Assembly (NCBI GenBank): GCA_027051165.1 | Contig: JALTZZ010000090.1 | Location: 1-46,398, forward strand | Direction of reading: 5' to 3' | Origin: an archaeon | GTDB taxonomy: Archaea; Hydrothermarchaeota; Hydrothermarchaeia; JALTZZ01 | Length of the DNA stretch: 46,398 bases | Shown here: piece after piece, positions 7,228-12,851 of the stretch | Layout of the letters: each line of letters starts with the position of its first letter | Numbering within the stretch: the stretch's first letter is position 1 | The notes under the pieces: model-generated | Database searches by the model: none | Told to the model about the DNA's origin: nothing | What the model saw: the letters and a program-made list of their open reading frames with translations, nothing else | Program-made: the position numbers and the translations under genes

Positions 7228-8493
7228 ATGAAAAGGGCTTTACTGGTGTTATTACTGATAGGAATGTTTTTGGCTGTGGTGGGGTGTGCAAAACCACAAG
7301 AAAAGCCGCCAGCCGAAAAGCCTGCCGAAAAACCAGCACCCGAGAAACCTGCTGAAAAACCAGCTCCTTCTCTGAAGGAAGTATATAAGGGAACAGTTTA
7401 TGTTGCAGGAATGGGCGGACACTTTGCTGTTGCAGATATAATTATAGACCCAAGCGATACTAACCTGCCAATAAAAGTTACAAGCTTAGGTAGGATAGCT
7501 CTTGGTCCAGGAAAGCAGTATGGAACCCACGACCCAAGGATTGATTGGAACACAAACCTAATGTTCTGGTCAACGTATGTAAACGACAGCGGATACTACC
7601 ACGTTGGATACGTTGACCTTGCAACTGGCGAAGTTAAGGTTGACAAGAAGGTTCCAATACCAAAAGAAGTTAAGAAAAAGCCTTTTGGATGCGGTTCTGG
7701 TCAGACAAGAGATTACTATCTACCGGTCTTCATGACATATCCAGGATATATAGATATATACGATAAGAAAACAATGGAACTTGTTAAAAGAGTTTGGATA
7801 AAAGGAGACCCATTCCCAGAAACATACTGTTGGTATCATGGAACTAATTCCCCAGACGAAAAGGAGTTTGCTCTTATAGTAACTGAGTGTACCGAACCAA
7901 ATAACTTTAAGACATCTACCGGTAAAGTGTATCTATACATACTTGACCTTCCAGCACTTTTAAACGGTGAACTTAAAGTTTTAAGACAGATGACATTAAC
8001 CGGAGAACCCGGAAAAACTGCTGTATTTAGGCAGTTCTATACAAATGATGGCAAATACTTGCTGCAAAGTGGCAGGGATAGATTCTGGGTCATAGATGTT
8101 CAGAACATGAAGGTTGTTGATGAAAAAATTCTAACAGCAGTAGGATTCCCCGAAGGAACGGAAAACCATGATGCCATGCCAACACCAGACGACAAATACG
8201 CAATCCTAACGCTTAGATTACCGATACAAGAAAACGGTAAGACAGTCAAAGACGGAGTAATAGTCCTGTACGACATGCAGAAGAAGGAGATTGTAGGAAA
8301 GCCTGTATCAACATGTAAAGCATGCCACGGAAAAGCTATTGGATACGGTAAGAGTGCTATACTCTGCGGTATAGAAGGTTTCAAGACGCTTAAGAAGACG
8401 AAGATTGAGGAAACTGCAGTAACTGGCGGTGCAACACAGGCACCGACACCAGCTCAGCCAGCTGAAGAAGAGGTTCAGCTTGGCTGCGGATAA
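7228..8493 (+). CDS. Beta-propeller-like lipoprotein with one heme c motif and a C-terminal Cys-Gly
   Basis: This 421-aa exported protein has a lipoprotein signal (Ala-Val-Val-Gly-Cys, lipidated Cys20) followed by a Pro/Ala/Lys/Glu spacer of Glu-Lys-Pro-Ala repeats (about 25-47). Residues 50-360 show WD40/YVTN-like strand repeats (Val-Tyr-Leu-Tyr-Ile-Leu-Asp, Phe-Trp-Val-Ile-Asp-Val, Val-Ile-Val-Leu-Tyr-Asp). One heme c site, Cys-Lys-Ala-Cys-His, lies at 363-367. A Thr/Pro/Ala-rich linker then leads to the final residues Gln-Leu-Gly-Cys-Gly, with Cys420 second from the end. Further cysteines are at 155, 201, 221 and 380. The fold assignment is inference from pattern. Downstream dsr/tus genes suggest a role in sulfur compound conversion or electron transfer on the outer face. 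The C-terminus recalls the SoxY carrier arm (Gly-Gly-Cys-Gly-Gly), but no homology is shown. Confidence 0.7.
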   Translation: MKRALLVLLLIGMFLAVVGCAKPQEKPPAEKPAEKPAPEKPAEKPAPSLKEVYKGTVYVAGMGGHFAVADIIIDPSDTNLPIKVTSLGRIALGPGKQYGTHDPRIDWNTNLMFWSTYVNDSGYYHVGYVDLATGEVKVDKKVPIPKEVKKKPFGCGSGQTRDYYLPVFMTYPGYIDIYDKKTMELVKRVWIKGDPFPETYCWYHGTNSPDEKEFALIVTECTEPNNFKTSTGKVYLYILDLPALLNGELKVLRQMTLTGEPGKTAVFRQFYTNDGKYLLQSGRDRFWVIDVQNMKVVDEKILTAVGFPEGTENHDAMPTPDDKYAILTLRLPIQENGKTVKDGVIVLYDMQKKEIVGKPVSTCKACHGKAIGYGKSAILCGIEGFKTLKKTKIEETAVTGGATQAPTPAQPAEEEVQLGCG

Positions 8494-8529: not shown

Positions 8530-8556
8530 GATTTAAGCTGAGTGGGGGTGCAATAT

Positions 8557-8841
8557 ATGGGGTTTGCGGTGTTTGTCAATAGCATAAACTGTGTGGATGT
8601 TTCAACGCTTGAAAGGCTGAATGTAGATGATCTTAGCATAGTGCTCGTTCAAGATGGTGTCTACCACGTTTTCATAAAGGATTCTCCAGTAAAGAAAAAA
8701 AATGCAAAGATATATGTTTTAAAGGAAGACCTTGAGTCAAGAGGGTTATCAGCGGAGAACGTTAGCGATGCAGAGGTGGTTGACTACTCAAAGCTTGTTG
8801 ATCTCATGATGGGAGAGTTTGAAAAGATGGTATGGCTTTAG
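8557..8841 (+). CDS. DsrH/TusB-like sulfur relay protein
   Basis: This 94-aa cytosolic protein fits DsrH/TusB, the small subunit of the DsrEFH (TusBCD) sulfur-transfer hexamer. Diagnostic features are Ile-Val-Leu-Val-Gln-Asp-Gly-Val-Tyr-His near residue 30, the alternating strand-helix layout, and the C-terminal Met-Val-Trp-Leu, since family members typically end around a Trp. A single Cys lies at residue 12. The start is placed at the ATG at 8557, because GGGGGTG lies seven bases upstream; a GTG at 8542 has no such signal. It is followed closely by the DsrE and DsrF partners, each preceded by its own ribosome binding site. It may bind and balance the DsrE active-site subunit without transferring sulfur itself. 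Confidence 0.78.
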   Translation: MGFAVFVNSINCVDVSTLERLNVDDLSIVLVQDGVYHVFIKDSPVKKKNAKIYVLKEDLESRGLSAENVSDAEVVDYSKLVDLMMGEFEKMVWL

Positions 8842-8858
8842 CTTTGGGGGTGTTTTTC

Positions 8859-9218
8859 ATGGGAACTCTGGTTATAGGAATTCTTACGAGACCTTACGGT
8901 TCAACAAACTGGGCTTTTGTTCTAAATCTTGCAAAAGCTGCACTTGAAAAGGGTCATAAAGTAAAGATATGGTGCTCTGGTGATGCAAACTTCATTTTAA
9001 AGAAAAATCAGAAGCCATTTGCAAAGAAGTTCAACTATGAGTCCCAGATAAAGGAGCTGATTGAGAAGGGTCTCGAAATAGTTGGCTGTGAGTCTTGCCA
9101 TCTAATGCGAGGAATTCACGAAGAAGAATTCATTGAAGGCGTTCCATCAAGAACAATGACATGGTTCTTTGAGAACATTGCAACAGCTGATAGAGTATTG
9201 TTTATAGGTGAGGAGTGA
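8859..9218 (+). CDS. DsrE/TusD-like sulfurtransferase subunit
   Basis: This 119-aa protein has the DsrE fold: an N-terminal strand Leu-Val-Ile-Gly-Ile-Leu-Thr-Arg-Pro-Tyr, a helix rich in Ala and Gly-His, and the active-site motif Cys-x-x-Cys-x-x-x-Arg-Gly (Cys-Glu-Ser-Cys-His-Leu-Met-Arg-Gly) at about 78-86. In DsrE/TusD a cysteine in this motif carries persulfide sulfur. The Cys-Glu-Ser-Cys-His sequence looks like a heme site, but the protein has no signal peptide, so heme attachment is unlikely. The ATG at 8859 is chosen because GGGGGTG lies seven bases upstream; upstream in-frame codons overlap dsrH. It overlaps the next gene by one base (TGATG). Confidence 0.85.
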   Translation: MGTLVIGILTRPYGSTNWAFVLNLAKAALEKGHKVKIWCSGDANFILKKNQKPFAKKFNYESQIKELIEKGLEIVGCESCHLMRGIHEEEFIEGVPSRTMTWFFENIATADRVLFIGEE

Positions 9219-9616
9219 TGGCGACGAAGAAGGTTCTTATCTTGGTTAGAAGCAACATGAAGGAAGAGGTTCCAAATCTTGGTATTGATCATGCAATGGG
9301 TGCAATGGCTGTTTTCTTAGAGGATGTTGAGTTTCAGGCAACAGTAGCATTTATAAACAGCGGTGTTCTCAACTGCATGAAGGGACAGAAGTTCTTAGAT
9401 GTCTACGGAGTTGAGGGTGTAGAAAACGTTATAAAGCTTGCACTTGCGAGTGATGTTAGGATAGTAGCATGCAAGGAAGACTTGGAGAAGTATGGAATAT
9501 CAGAGGAAATGCTCACGGATGCAAAGGAGCTTGGTGTAGAGACCGGAATAGAGGTTCTTCCTTGGGAAAAGATAAACGAGGAGATAAAAGAAGCAGATTA
9601 CGTCCTCTTCTTCTGA
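9218..9616 (+). CDS. DsrF/TusC-like sulfur relay protein (DsrE superfamily)
   Basis: This 132-aa DsrE-superfamily protein completes a DsrH-DsrE-DsrF set. It opens with Lys-Lys-Val-Leu-Ile-Leu-Val-Arg-Ser-Asn. It contains the Ala-Met-Gly-Ala-Met-Ala helix, a Cys in Leu-Asn-Cys-Met, and Val-Ala-Cys-Lys-Glu-Asp-Leu-Glu-Lys-Tyr-Gly-Ile at about 87-98, matching the active-site region of DsrE/DsrF paralogues. Cys89 is the likely counterpart of the sulfur-carrying residue. Translation begins at the ATG sharing one base with the dsrE stop, so the two subunits are coupled. Assignment to DsrF specifically, as opposed to a second DsrE, rests on gene order and is less certain. Confidence 0.75.
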   Translation: MATKKVLILVRSNMKEEVPNLGIDHAMGAMAVFLEDVEFQATVAFINSGVLNCMKGQKFLDVYGVEGVENVIKLALASDVRIVACKEDLEKYGISEEMLTDAKELGVETGIEVLPWEKINEEIKEADYVLFF

Positions 9617-9645
9617 AGTTTTTAAATTTTTTCAAGAGCTCTGCA

Positions 9646-11346
9646 ATGACTTTTTATAATTTTGTTTTGATTTTTTTAATTTTAATAAATCTGCTTTTTT
9701 CTGCAAGCTTATATGAGAGCTGCGATTACTGTCATTCAAACGGAACTTTAATGAAGAACTATTCATTTTACGTTTTCTCTGTAGAAGAGGTTTGGAACGA
9801 GAGTAGGATGTTTAGAGAGGGATTAGGCGGTCCACTATGCAGCGACTGCCACCTTGGAAATGCAACCTCTTTTGATGAAAAAACTGCGCACAGCAAAATT
9901 CTAACCCTGATAGTTGTAGGGAAGGATAAGCTCCTCCCAATTGACAGAAGCTTCTATTTAGAGATAAAGAACTACAGCAATAAGACCTATATTTATCTCC
10001 TAAATGGAACGGAATATATAAAAACTGTTCTGTATCACGACAGAAACAGAACTACATACGGTTTCGATATAAATATTGCAAATAAAACATGCGGAAAATG
10101 CCACTCAAAGATCGTAGATGAATTTTCGAGAAGCATAATGGGTAGTGTAAGGTTTCAATCGCTATACGTAAACTTCTCATATCCGGCACCTCACGACTGC
10201 GGATACTGGTTAAAAAACTTTTCCCTAATAAAAAATGAGCTCTCAGTAAGCTATACAAAGGAGCAGGCTGAGCTGAACAGAAGGGTCTGCAACCAGTGCC
10301 ACGTATCCTGCTTGGACTGCCACTACAAGCCGCAGATCGGTAAGCATGCCTTCAGAAGATTTGTTGAGCCTTCTACGTGCTATTACGGAAACGGCAGAGG
10401 TATATGCCACTCTGGAGCGGAAGAGTTCAGGAGAGGTGGAAGCTACTTTAAAGGTTATTTTACAAATAAATCCGACATTCATGCTGATATTGGGCTTTCC
10501 TGTCTTGACTGCCATATTTTTATGAACCACAACATCGAAAGAAAAGCTTACTGCAAGGACTGCCACAAAAACGTTGAGAAGAAGATAAAAAGAAGTGTTC
10601 ACAGAAATCTCAGCTGCGAGGCATGCCACATCTCAACGGAGCTCGGCGGCTATCAGATAGTTGTCTGGGGACCGGGACTATACTGGAACATGTCAACCCC
10701 TCTAACAAAGCATAAGTATTTCGGCAAAATGAACACAACTCTCTTAATAAAAAACATGGAGGGAACATGGATACCAGTAAAACCGATACCTCATTTTGTT
10801 TTGAATATAAAAGAAAAAATAGAAAAAACCGGTCTTAAATTTAGGATTGTTGAGGGGAGGAACTTTTCAAACGATGCATACATTGTTTTCGGAACGTTTA
10901 GAATAGGGAATACAAGTGTGGTAGCATGGCTCCACATGGATAAGGTTTCTCACGGCATGGGCAAGGGTAAAAACTGCACCTCTTGCCATGCAGACGGTAG
11001 CCAACTAATACTTTCTAAATGGTGGTTTAAGGATGAAGGTTTTCTTATGAAAGGAAGAACAGTGATAGTTGCGAATTCTACTGGAATATACGTGAGTATA
11101 TTGGGTAACGCTTCCCCTGAGAGTTTATACAGCTATGCTCCATGGATGGAGATTCAGAACCTGAGCAGCATGGGGAGCTATGCGCTTCCGAAGATTTCAG
11201 AAGAGTGCGAAGAATATTGCTTAAAGTGTCATGCATCGCACCACGATACCATTTTACCAAAGTATATGACTGTAGATCCTTATTTTTATGCTCTTTTAAT
11301 AATTTTTTTAATACTTTTTATTCTTATTATAGTTATCAGAAGATGA
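9646..11346 (+). CDS. Membrane-anchored decaheme c-type cytochrome
   Basis: This 566-aa protein has an N-terminal signal or anchor (about 4-20, Phe-Val-Leu-Ile-Phe-Leu-Ile-Leu) and a C-terminal transmembrane helix (about 547-564) ending Arg-Arg. The body therefore lies outside the membrane. Ten CxxCH heme motifs start at residues 26, 65, 149, 215, 222, 286, 303, 324, 444 and 525. An eleventh possible site is C-x8-CH at 245-255 (Cys-Tyr-Tyr-Gly-Asn-Gly-Arg-Gly-Ile-Cys-His). Many N-glycosylation sequons (N-x-S/T) are present. The start is the ATG at 9646, which begins exactly at the signal sequence; a longer in-frame reading overlaps dsrF. It follows dsrF by 29 bp. A role as an electron conduit or terminal reductase for a sulfur compound or metal is inference. 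No known multiheme family was identified with certainty. Confidence 0.88.
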   Translation: MTFYNFVLIFLILINLLFSASLYESCDYCHSNGTLMKNYSFYVFSVEEVWNESRMFREGLGGPLCSDCHLGNATSFDEKTAHSKILTLIVVGKDKLLPIDRSFYLEIKNYSNKTYIYLLNGTEYIKTVLYHDRNRTTYGFDINIANKTCGKCHSKIVDEFSRSIMGSVRFQSLYVNFSYPAPHDCGYWLKNFSLIKNELSVSYTKEQAELNRRVCNQCHVSCLDCHYKPQIGKHAFRRFVEPSTCYYGNGRGICHSGAEEFRRGGSYFKGYFTNKSDIHADIGLSCLDCHIFMNHNIERKAYCKDCHKNVEKKIKRSVHRNLSCEACHISTELGGYQIVVWGPGLYWNMSTPLTKHKYFGKMNTTLLIKNMEGTWIPVKPIPHFVLNIKEKIEKTGLKFRIVEGRNFSNDAYIVFGTFRIGNTSVVAWLHMDKVSHGMGKGKNCTSCHADGSQLILSKWWFKDEGFLMKGRTVIVANSTGIYVSILGNASPESLYSYAPWMEIQNLSSMGSYALPKISEECEEYCLKCHASHHDTILPKYMTVDPYFYALLIIFLILFILIIVIRR

Positions 11347-11464: not shown

Positions 11465-11509
11465 AGGTTGTTCTAAGTAATTCCAAACCGATAAGCGGGG
11501 GTATGGGTG

Positions 11510-11770
11510 ATGGCTGTTGTAAATCTACCAGATATAGGAGAGGTTGAAGTACATAAGCAGGTGAACTGTTCTGGAATGGTTTGTCCGAGACCGCAACTTG
11601 AGGTAAAGAAGGCTATACAATCAATGAACTCTGGAGAGGTGGCAGAGGTTATTATAACGAACCCGCCATCTGTTGAGACTGTTAGCGAGCTTATAAAAAA
11701 GATGAAGTGCGAGCTTTTAGCCAAAGTTAAGGAGGGAAACGTCTTCAAGATATACTTCAAGAAACCCTGA
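11510..11770 (+). CDS. tusA: TusA family sulfur carrier protein
   Basis: This 86-aa protein has the TusA fold signature Cys-Pro-x-Pro (Val-Cys-Pro-Arg-Pro-Gln-Leu-Glu-Val-Lys-Lys-Ala) at about 23-34, where Cys24 carries persulfide sulfur. A second cysteine lies four residues before it (Cys19), and another is in the last helix region. TusA proteins deliver sulfur to DsrEFH/TusBCD in bacteria and archaea, and both sets are encoded here. GGGGGT lies seven bases upstream of the ATG at 11510; the GTG three bases earlier is an unlikely alternative. It precedes two YeeE/YedE-type membrane proteins, a pairing also seen in bacterial thiosulfate uptake loci. Confidence 0.92.
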   Translation: MAVVNLPDIGEVEVHKQVNCSGMVCPRPQLEVKKAIQSMNSGEVAEVIITNPPSVETVSELIKKMKCELLAKVKEGNVFKIYFKKP

Positions 11771-11785: not shown

Positions 11786-12292
11786 ATGGGTGAGGAGAAG
11801 AAATCCATCTTCGAAACAGAGCTTGACTATAAGAAAGGCGGAGTTATATTAGGTATAATGCTCGTTCTCCTCGTCATACCAGCTTTAGGCTACGGAAGGG
11901 CATGGGCGTTTGCTGGCGGCTTAAGGTGGATAGATAAAACCATCATTGGAGCAATATCTCCCGATACTATAGCTGGTAATCCCTTCTGGAGGATCCTCAA
12001 GGCAAATCCAGAGGTAGCATTGATGTTAGCGTTCTTTGTGCTCGGAAGCTTTGTTGCAGCAGTTCTATCTAAGGAGTTCGTTATCGGCATGGATAAGCAG
12101 TTTCTCCTTGAATCAATAGTGGGCGGATTCCTCATGGGGGTTGGCATAGTTCTCATAACAACATGCAACGTTGGCTGCTTCCTAAACGGCTTGCCGCAGC
12201 TCAACCTCGGTGCAATGATAGCTGGCGTAGGGCTTATAATAGGGACCTACATCGGCGGAAAATACTACGAAAAGAAGGTTATGAGCCTATGA
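11786..12292 (+). CDS. YeeE/YedE-type sulfur compound transporter, half 1
   Basis: This 168-aa membrane protein has about four hydrophobic segments (about 18-35, 76-95, 107-130 and 142-160). The family signature Gly-x-x-Met-Gly-x-Gly-Ile-x-Leu-x-x-x-Cys-Asn-x-Gly-Cys-Phe-Leu-Asn-Gly lies near residues 114-136. In the characterised family member TsuA, such cysteines guide thiosulfate through the membrane. Here the usual Gly-Cys-Thr is Thr-Cys-Asn, with a second Cys three residues on. Full-length family members are about 350 aa with two such halves; this gene and the next together make up that length. It starts 15 bp after tusA and ends one base before the GAGGTG that precedes the second half. 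The transported compound is not known. Confidence 0.82.
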   Translation: MGEEKKSIFETELDYKKGGVILGIMLVLLVIPALGYGRAWAFAGGLRWIDKTIIGAISPDTIAGNPFWRILKANPEVALMLAFFVLGSFVAAVLSKEFVIGMDKQFLLESIVGGFLMGVGIVLITTCNVGCFLNGLPQLNLGAMIAGVGLIIGTYIGGKYYEKKVMSL

Positions 12293-12302
12293 GGTGTCTA
12301 AA

Positions 12303-12851
12303 ATGGTTGAACCTGTCTACATATCAGCGGCAGTTTTTGGATTTATACTTGGTTTTCTCGTTCAAAGGTCAAGGTTCTGCATGACAAGTGCTATAAGAGA
12401 TTTTCTACTGTTTAAGGTTACAAGGAACCTAAAGATGGCTCTTATAATACTTGTGATAACAACGTTCTTCTACACACTCTTCCTAACGTTCAACGTTTTC
12501 AAGCCTACGCCAATACCAGCTGGCTGGTTCAGCTTTGTAGGCGGTATATTGTTCGGCATCGGCATGGCTATCGCTGGTGGTTGCGTTATATCAACGTTTT
12601 CAAGGATAGGGCAGGGGAACATAAACTACGTCATAGTAGCGATCTTCATGCTGATAGGGATATACGTTGGAAGCTATCTGTTCAAGCTGATACCAAATGC
12701 GTTGCCACCAAAAACACAGCTGTTCGGGTATAAGGCAGGTCTTGTCTGGCTACACAAACTGTTCAACGTCCCACCAATAGTTTTGGGAATAATATTTACA
12801 GTGATCTTTGCACTCGCCTACATATACTTGGAGAGAAAAGAATCTTTGTAA
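12303..12851 (+). CDS. YeeE/YedE-type sulfur compound transporter, half 2
   Basis: This 182-aa membrane protein has about five hydrophobic segments. It carries the N-terminal family motif Gly-Phe-x-x-Gly-Phe-x-x-Gln-Arg-Ser-Arg-Phe-Cys-Met-x-x-Ala-Ile-Arg-Asp at about 13-33. The second signature Gly-x-Gly-Met-Ala-x-Ala-Gly-Gly-Cys-Val-Ile-Ser-Thr lies at about 86-99. The cysteines in Phe-Cys-Met and Gly-Gly-Cys match the conserved thiol positions of the family. The start is placed at the ATG at 12303, six bases after GAGGTG; a GTG at 12294 would add three residues. It probably pairs with the preceding half to form one channel and hands sulfur to TusA. A T-rich terminator follows. Confidence 0.85.
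   Translation: MVEPVYISAAVFGFILGFLVQRSRFCMTSAIRDFLLFKVTRNLKMALIILVITTFFYTLFLTFNVFKPTPIPAGWFSFVGGILFGIGMAIAGGCVISTFSRIGQGNINYVIVAIFMLIGIYVGSYLFKLIPNALPPKTQLFGYKAGLVWLHKLFNVPPIVLGIIFTVIFALAYIYLERKESL

What the first reader, a model, noticed from the sequence alone, without database searches (positions are those of the whole stretch)
8449..8493. Lipoprotein ends in Leu-Gly-Cys-Gly after a flexible linker, like a SoxY-type carrier arm
Seen: the last residues are Gln-Leu-Gly-Cys-Gly, following a Thr/Pro/Ala linker and the heme motif. SoxY carries sulfur substrates on the Cys of a C-terminal Gly-Gly-Cys-Gly-Gly arm. A propeller lipoprotein with heme plus such an arm would be a new arrangement. The gene lies at the head of sulfur relay genes.
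Basis: partly seen in the sequence, partly recalled or inferred. Interest (0 to 1): 0.72.

Follow-up and report, generated by a model that had tools for sequence, protein, structure and literature searches.

The report
Shared cysteine tail on copper-linked lipoproteins
In an uncultured archaeon, a haem-carrying surface protein ends in a short flexible tail (EEEVQLGCG) that is repeated letter for letter on that organism's copper-chaperone lipoprotein, so the tail more likely handles copper or docks both proteins to a common partner than carries sulfur as SoxY does.

Summary
In detail: the 421-residue haem-propeller lipoprotein (7228-8493) ends ...PAEEEVQLGCG, and the tail is predicted disordered. 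As a SoxY-type sulfur arm it is not supported. None of 33 orthologue loci (33-57% identical; Nitrospirota, Rokubacteria, Desulfobacterota, Hydrothermarchaeota) has the tail; the closest relative lacks it yet keeps the same sulfur-relay neighbours. A sister subfamily without such neighbours has it in 5 of 5 members (LGCG/LGCM). In the window's own genome exactly one other gene of real length ends in LGCG: a PCuAC copper-chaperone lipoprotein whose last nine residues, EEEVQLGCG, are identical although six of nine codons differ. It lies beside MacB/LolD-type ABC transporter genes, the usual partners of this propeller in bacteria. In two other archaeal genomes, a 50-52-residue membrane peptide ending HKLGCG lies next to a NosL copper-chaperone gene. 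Related chaperones end in Met- or His-rich tails instead. Most likely the penultimate Cys is a Cu(I) ligand, or a docking thiol, on a flexible tail shared within a copper-assembly/electron-transfer module. Copper binding is inferred, not shown; sulfur transfer is not excluded. It is a new variant of a known kind (copper-chaperone tails), moderately interesting because one tag recurs on unrelated proteins.

The parts
7228..8493 (+). haem-propeller lipoprotein CDS, 421 aa (subfamily A, with C-terminal Cys tail)
   Evidence: ORF; 33 related loci in genome contigs; AlphaFold2 mean pLDDT 86.9
7228..7287 (+). signal peptide and lipobox-like end; predicted lipidated Cys20 at 7285-7287
   Evidence: sequence MKRALLVLLLIGMFLAVVGC
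7369..8394 (+). beta-propeller, residues 48-389; invariant H65, H101, C155, M169, H204, R268, H314, C380
   Evidence: alignment of 34; fold search matches span residues 48-391
8314..8328 (+). c-type haem motif CKACH (C363, C366, H367), invariant in 34 of 34
8365..8367 (+). Cys380 of the LCGI/LCGL motif, invariant; other family members end a few residues after it
8425..8463 (+). Ala/Thr/Pro/Gln linker (GGATQAPTPAQPA), predicted disordered
8464..8493 (+). C-terminal tail EEEVQLGCG plus stop; Cys420 at 8485-8487; identical to the tail of the genome's PCuAC lipoprotein (G000:C5, L096:9712-10182 -)
8542..8841 (+). DsrH/TusB-like protein
   Evidence: Pfam PF04077 1.6e-13, TIGR03011 4.2e-15
8832..9218 (+). 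DsrE-family protein
   Evidence: PF02635 7e-16
9215..9616 (+). DsrE-family protein
   Evidence: PF02635 1.9e-5
9469..11346 (+). multihaem c-type cytochrome ORF (the 5' part of the ORF overlaps the previous gene; the real start is probably further in)
   Evidence: many CxxCH motifs; PF14522 1.4e-10
11507..11770 (+). TusA sulfurtransferase
   Evidence: PF01206 6.2e-21
11786..12292 (+). half of a YeeE/TsuA-type sulfur transporter
   Evidence: PF04143 6.7e-16
12294..12851 (+). other half of the YeeE/TsuA-type transporter
   Evidence: PF04143 5.8e-28

Best explanation
The protein is the archaeal member of a widespread but undescribed family of exported haem-c beta-propellers that work with a MacB/LolD-type ABC transporter and copper chaperones (PCuAC, NosL). 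Its extra C-terminal tail is a flexible copper-handling or docking arm. The penultimate Cys420 is most likely an unpaired thiol that binds Cu(I) transiently, so that copper can be passed between, or held by, membrane-anchored partners carrying the same tail: this propeller and the PCuAC lipoprotein. Shown: sequence, distribution of the tail, exact sharing with PCuAC under synonymous change, gene context, predicted disorder. Inferred: Cu(I) binding, direction of transfer, and that the propeller is the copper client.
For: The only other real gene ending in LGCG in the genome is a PCuAC copper chaperone (PF04314 1.1e-18), with nine identical terminal residues and 6 of 9 codons different. It sits next to an ABC ATPase, two MacB-like permeases, a Rieske protein and a cytochrome b. 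In bacteria the propeller gene is followed directly by the MacB-like permease in 24 of 33 loci and by permease plus ATPase in 17; PCuAC-cluster genes occur in 8 and NosL-cluster genes in 8 of the 33 loci. A third LGCG carrier, a 50-52-aa single-TM peptide in two genomes, lies directly beside NosL with a MacB-type ABC and a second NosL nearby. Homologous chaperones carry Met- or His-rich ends instead: NosL ...GMDMGSEGEMKM, PCuAC ...EGMDMGGM, Nitrospirota PCuAC ...HKHMHH and HLMHHH. [quoted passage not shown] Sister subfamily B, with the tail in 5 of 5, lies beside a thioredoxin-like lipoprotein, and thiol reductases are needed to keep copper-ligand Cys reduced in Cox assembly (PMC12860648). Cys census: C155/C380 invariant, C363/C366 haem, C201/C221 only in the window protein and its nearest relative, C420 left without an obvious partner.
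Against: No metal binding has been measured. A single Cys is a weak Cu(I) site on its own. In one structure the PCuAC C-terminal extension did not coordinate copper (PMC12860648). 33 orthologues manage without the tail, so it is not needed for the core function. The window gene's immediate neighbours are sulfur-relay genes, not copper genes; the copper genes are on another contig. The genome has no NosL.
Confidence: 0.45

Rival explanations
1. The tail is a recognition or docking tag. A common partner (the MacB-type periplasmic domain, a protease, or an enzyme that modifies the Cys) binds EEEVQLGCG, so the whole peptide is kept and the Cys may be modified or simply contacted.
For: The identity extends over nine residues, more than a metal ligand needs; the carriers are unrelated in fold but all membrane-anchored and near ABC/NosL/PCuAC genes.
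Against: Subfamily B and the small TM peptide share only LGC[GM], so the conserved core is the Cys with its neighbours rather than the acidic part. No candidate modifying enzyme was identified.
Confidence: 0.25
2. SoxY/DsrC-like sulfur carrier arm: Cys420 carries persulfide or thiosulfonate for the DsrE/DsrH/TusA/YeeE neighbours, or supplies sulfide for a metal-sulfur cluster.
For: Penultimate Cys flanked by Gly resembles the SoxY end (a mutagenesis primer in PMC5336275 implies a V-G-G-[Cys position]-G end in a SoxY); sulfur genes adjoin; Sulf_transp-cluster genes also lie near the propeller in several bacterial loci; the ABC transporter NosDFY is thought to supply sulfide to the CuZ site (PMC6530538).
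Against: Tail and sulfur neighbours are uncoupled: the nearest relative has the genes but no tail, while subfamily B and PCuAC have the tail without the genes. DsrE/DsrH/TusA are normally cytoplasmic, whereas the lipoprotein is exported. No SoxY or SoxB found.
Confidence: 0.18
3. Intermolecular disulfide or electron-transfer clamp: Cys420 pairs with the identical tail Cys of PCuAC or with a second copy, tethering them; the thioredoxin near subfamily B resolves it.
For: Cys420 lacks an obvious intramolecular partner; same tail on both proteins; SoxY arms cross-link in vitro (PMC5336275).
Against: Such disulfides are often artefacts; nothing shows that the two proteins meet.
Confidence: 0.08
4. 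The tail is a neutral lineage-specific extension and the match to PCuAC is coincidence.
For: Absent in all 33 orthologues.
Against: Exact 9-residue identity with synonymous codon change (a rough composition estimate gives about 1e-8 for ~2500 genes) and recurrence of LGC at the end of five sister proteins.
Confidence: 0.04

Closest known systems
SoxY (SoxYZ sulfur carrier)
   Same: Flexible C-terminal end with Cys next to the terminus, flanked by Gly
   Different: Different fold (beta-propeller with haem, lipoprotein), QLGCG rather than GGCGG, no SoxB/SoxY found, tail absent in orthologues, shared with a copper chaperone
PCuAC copper chaperones with Met/His-rich C-terminal extensions (PcuC, PMC12860648)
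   Same: Disordered C-terminal extension ending in a potential copper ligand; the genome's own PCuAC bears the identical tail
   Different: Here one Cys instead of Met/His clusters, and the tail is also on a haem propeller
DsrC C-terminal arm with penultimate Cys (own knowledge)
   Same: Flexible arm ending Gly-Cys-Xaa
   Different: DsrC is a small cytoplasmic protein of the sulfite reductase system; no sequence relation was tested
Nitrous oxide reductase NosZ and its NosL/NosDFY assembly genes; thiocyanate dehydrogenase
   Same: Propeller fold (VIA Z about 20); ABC transporter plus Cu(I) chaperones as neighbours; conserved His at the starts of inner strands
   Different: No nos_propeller Pfam match, no CuA domain, a haem-c motif at the C-terminal edge, mixed His/Cys/Arg conserved positions; Z values of N2OR and of unrelated propellers are tied
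Lactonase-type (clade III) NosZ, He et al. 2025 Nature (paper not held)
   Same: Propeller enzyme class outside clades I and II; weak Pfam Lactonase hits in some members here

Membership tests
SoxY | SoxY domain (Pfam PF13501) | tested here: not met
   No Pfam family at E<=0.001 in the protein
SoxY | C-terminal GGCGG-type arm with the carrier Cys at the terminus | tested here: inconclusive
   Penultimate Cys with Gly on both sides is present, but QLGCG rather than GGCGG, and it is not conserved in 33 orthologues
SoxY | Partner genes soxZ, soxXA, soxB, soxCD | tested here: inconclusive
   No SoxB hit in the genome (control genomes rang, none over the cut-off); no SoxY hit but no control rang; SoxZ, SoxXA and SoxCD not searched; none seen near the gene
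SoxY | Covalent sulfur adducts on the arm Cys | not testable with these tools
   Needs mass spectrometry
Copper-binding C-terminal tail (PCuAC type) | Disordered C-terminal extension with potential Cu(I) ligands (Met/His/Cys) | tested here: met
   pLDDT<50 for 400-421; Cys420; identical tail on the genome's PCuAC
Copper-binding C-terminal tail (PCuAC type) | Binds Cu(I) | not testable with these tools
   Needs titration and spectroscopy
NosZ (N2O reductase) | Seven-bladed propeller | tested here: inconclusive
   N2OR among structural matches, Z about 20, but tied with many unrelated propellers
NosZ (N2O reductase) | nos_propeller domain and C-terminal CuA cupredoxin | tested here: not met
   No Pfam match; the protein ends shortly after the haem motif; the genome has no nos_propeller hit at all
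Lactonase-type NosZ (clade III) | Sequence membership of the He et al. 2025 family | not testable with these tools
   Paper not held; no model available
C-terminal sorting signals (CTERM type) | Motif followed by a transmembrane helix and basic end | tested here: not met
   The tail has no hydrophobic segment and ends at the motif; no NCBIfam match

The most novel reading that the evidence does not exclude
LGC[G/M] at the extreme C-terminus is a transferable tail module used by several unrelated membrane-anchored proteins of one archaeal phylum (haem propellers, a PCuAC chaperone, a mini membrane peptide) as a common Cu(I) or sulfur hand-over arm for assembling a new haem- and copper-containing propeller enzyme.
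Probability: 0.3. Interest if true: 0.75.

Novelty: new variant of a known kind. Interest (0 to 1): 0.5.

Why it matters
It links an undescribed, widespread family of exported haem propellers to copper-assembly genes, and gives a simple handle (a shared nine-residue tail) for finding which proteins work together when their genes are split across the genome. If the Cys passes copper or sulfur, it would be a new kind of shared arm in metalloenzyme assembly; how the sulfur and copper of propeller copper sites are delivered is still an open question.

Tried and rejected
A single-protein scan of genome contigs and of viral contigs, and a tblastn of plasmids, found no relative; a mixed A+B alignment was too divergent to scan. 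phmmer of the single protein against PDB sequences gave nothing. Most LGCG-stop pattern hits in the phylum are short spurious frames. Sigma-70/terminator scans are at chance level and not meant for archaea. Considered and rejected: recent DNA copying of the tail between the two genes (codons differ); assembly artefact (both genes are ordinary open frames with matching tails on separate contigs); disulfide of Cys420 to a propeller Cys (nearest relative keeps all other Cys without Cys420, so no partner is evident, though not excluded).

Full report
Observation. The window carries a 421-residue lipoprotein gene at 7228-8493 (+). It has a signal peptide ending VVGC, a Pro/Glu/Lys-rich spacer, a beta-propeller, a CKACH haem motif at 8314-8328, an invariant LCG motif, and a C-terminal extension ending EEEVQLGCG. 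AlphaFold2 with 34 sequences gives mean pLDDT 86.9 and pTM 0.81, with residues 400-421 below 50, so the arm is probably flexible.

Host. The close relatives are in one small archaeal phylum (23 genomes held). Named matches include Candidatus Pyrohabitans, which NCBI places in Candidatus Hydrothermarchaeota. That the window comes from this phylum is an inference from kinship, not a named record.

Orthologues. A scan with a four-member alignment found 33 loci in Nitrospirota, Rokubacteria, Desulfobacterota, a few other bacteria and three archaea of this phylum. All are colinear with the window protein and end at or shortly after LCG[IL]DxNW. None has the Cys tail; the nearest (L038, 57% identical in the alignment) ends GHGTFKKTTVKE. 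Invariant in 34 of 34: H65, H101, C155, M169, H204, H314, the haem Cys pair and His, and C380; R268 is also invariant.

Sister subfamily. Five proteins in the same phylum, 23-26% identical to the window protein, end AWAEKVSLGCG (four) or TWEKSTTLGCM (one). There LGC is invariant although the proteins have diverged to 67% identity. The tail therefore looks selected in this subfamily.

The decisive find. Searching the genome for [LF]GCG-stop gave five pattern hits, and only two end real genes. The other one encodes a PCuAC copper-chaperone lipoprotein (PF04314, 1.1e-18) ending MMMQEEEVQLGCG. Nine terminal residues are identical to the window protein, yet six of nine codons differ and all seven nucleotide differences are synonymous. 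This argues for selection on the peptide and against a recent copy. That gene lies beside an ABC ATPase, two MacB-like permeases, a Rieske protein and a cytochrome b.

Why this fits. In bacteria the propeller gene is followed by a MacB-like permease in 24 of 33 loci and by permease and LolD-like ATPase in 17, with PCuAC- and NosL-cluster genes in 8 loci each. The archaeon appears to have split this operon: the propeller is in the window, while the ABC genes and PCuAC are on another contig, and the two lipoproteins share a tail. A further LGCG ending is on a 50-52-residue single-TM peptide in two other genomes. It lies directly beside NosL, with a MacB-type ABC and a second NosL close by. Chaperones in the same setting end in Met-rich (NosL GMDMGSEGEMKM; PCuAC EGMDMGGM) or His-rich (HKHMHH, HLMHHH) stretches. 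[quoted passage not shown]

Against a SoxY-type arm. The sulfur-relay neighbours (DsrH-like, two DsrE-like, TusA, split YeeE-type transporter) are also present in the nearest relative, which has no tail. Subfamily B and PCuAC have the tail but no such neighbours in the stretches fetched. No SoxY domain is found in the protein and no SoxY or SoxB in the genome, with the caveat that the SoxY search had no positive control. What remains of the idea is chemistry: a penultimate Cys between glycines can carry sulfur as well as copper, and sulfide supply is thought to be part of CuZ assembly in N2O reductase (PMC6530538). I keep this at 0.18.

What the propeller may be. By fold it is a beta-propeller; matches include N2O reductase, thiocyanate dehydrogenase, YncE and the hydrazine synthase beta subunit, but Z values are tied with unrelated propellers. 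By the predicted strand order, one invariant residue (H65, H101, C155, H204, R268, H314, C380) falls near the start of successive inner strands, which suggests seven blades. That would suit a metal site at the channel mouth, as in N2O reductase. This is an inference from secondary structure; the coordinates could not be examined. The genome has neither a nos_propeller NosZ nor NosL by these searches.

Cys420 partner. Of the mature Cys residues, two bind haem, C155 and C380 are invariant, C201 and C221 occur only in the window protein and its nearest relative, and C420 is alone. A free thiol, a metal ligand or an intermolecular disulfide all fit.

Verdict. A flexible Cys arm is supported, the SoxY analogy is not, and a copper-handling or docking tail shared with the copper chaperone is the best reading at 0.45.

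Noticed in passing
L096:9712-10182 (-), G000:C5: PCuAC lipoprotein ending EEEVQLGCG, next to ABC ATPase, two MacB-like permeases, Rieske protein, cytochrome b and a Tat-type lipoprotein with a C_GCAxxG_C_C domain and a CxxCH motif near its end.
   Followed up: yes
L149 around 8935-9085 (-) (G006:C8) and L150 around 9010-9170 (+) (G017:C90): 50-52-aa single-TM peptide ending TTVPPHKLGCG between a NosL lipoprotein with a Met-rich end and a multihaem cytochrome lipoprotein.
   Followed up: partly
L038-L070: Widespread, apparently unnamed family of exported haem-c propellers followed by MacB-like permease and LolD-like ATPase, often with PCuAC or NosL; no Pfam or NCBIfam family hits the window protein.
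   Followed up: partly
L075-L078, L074: Subfamily B propeller genes stand next to genes on the opposite strand for a thioredoxin-like lipoprotein and a multihaem cytochrome of the same cluster as the window's 9469-11346 ORF.
   Followed up: partly
window 11786-12851: YeeE/TsuA-type transporter split into two adjacent genes whose halves are in swapped order relative to the Pfam profile.
   Followed up: no
L039, L046, L048, L063, L064, L079: Near some propeller genes: a conserved set of a glycosyltransferase, a SPASM radical SAM protein and a B12-binding radical SAM protein.
   Followed up: no
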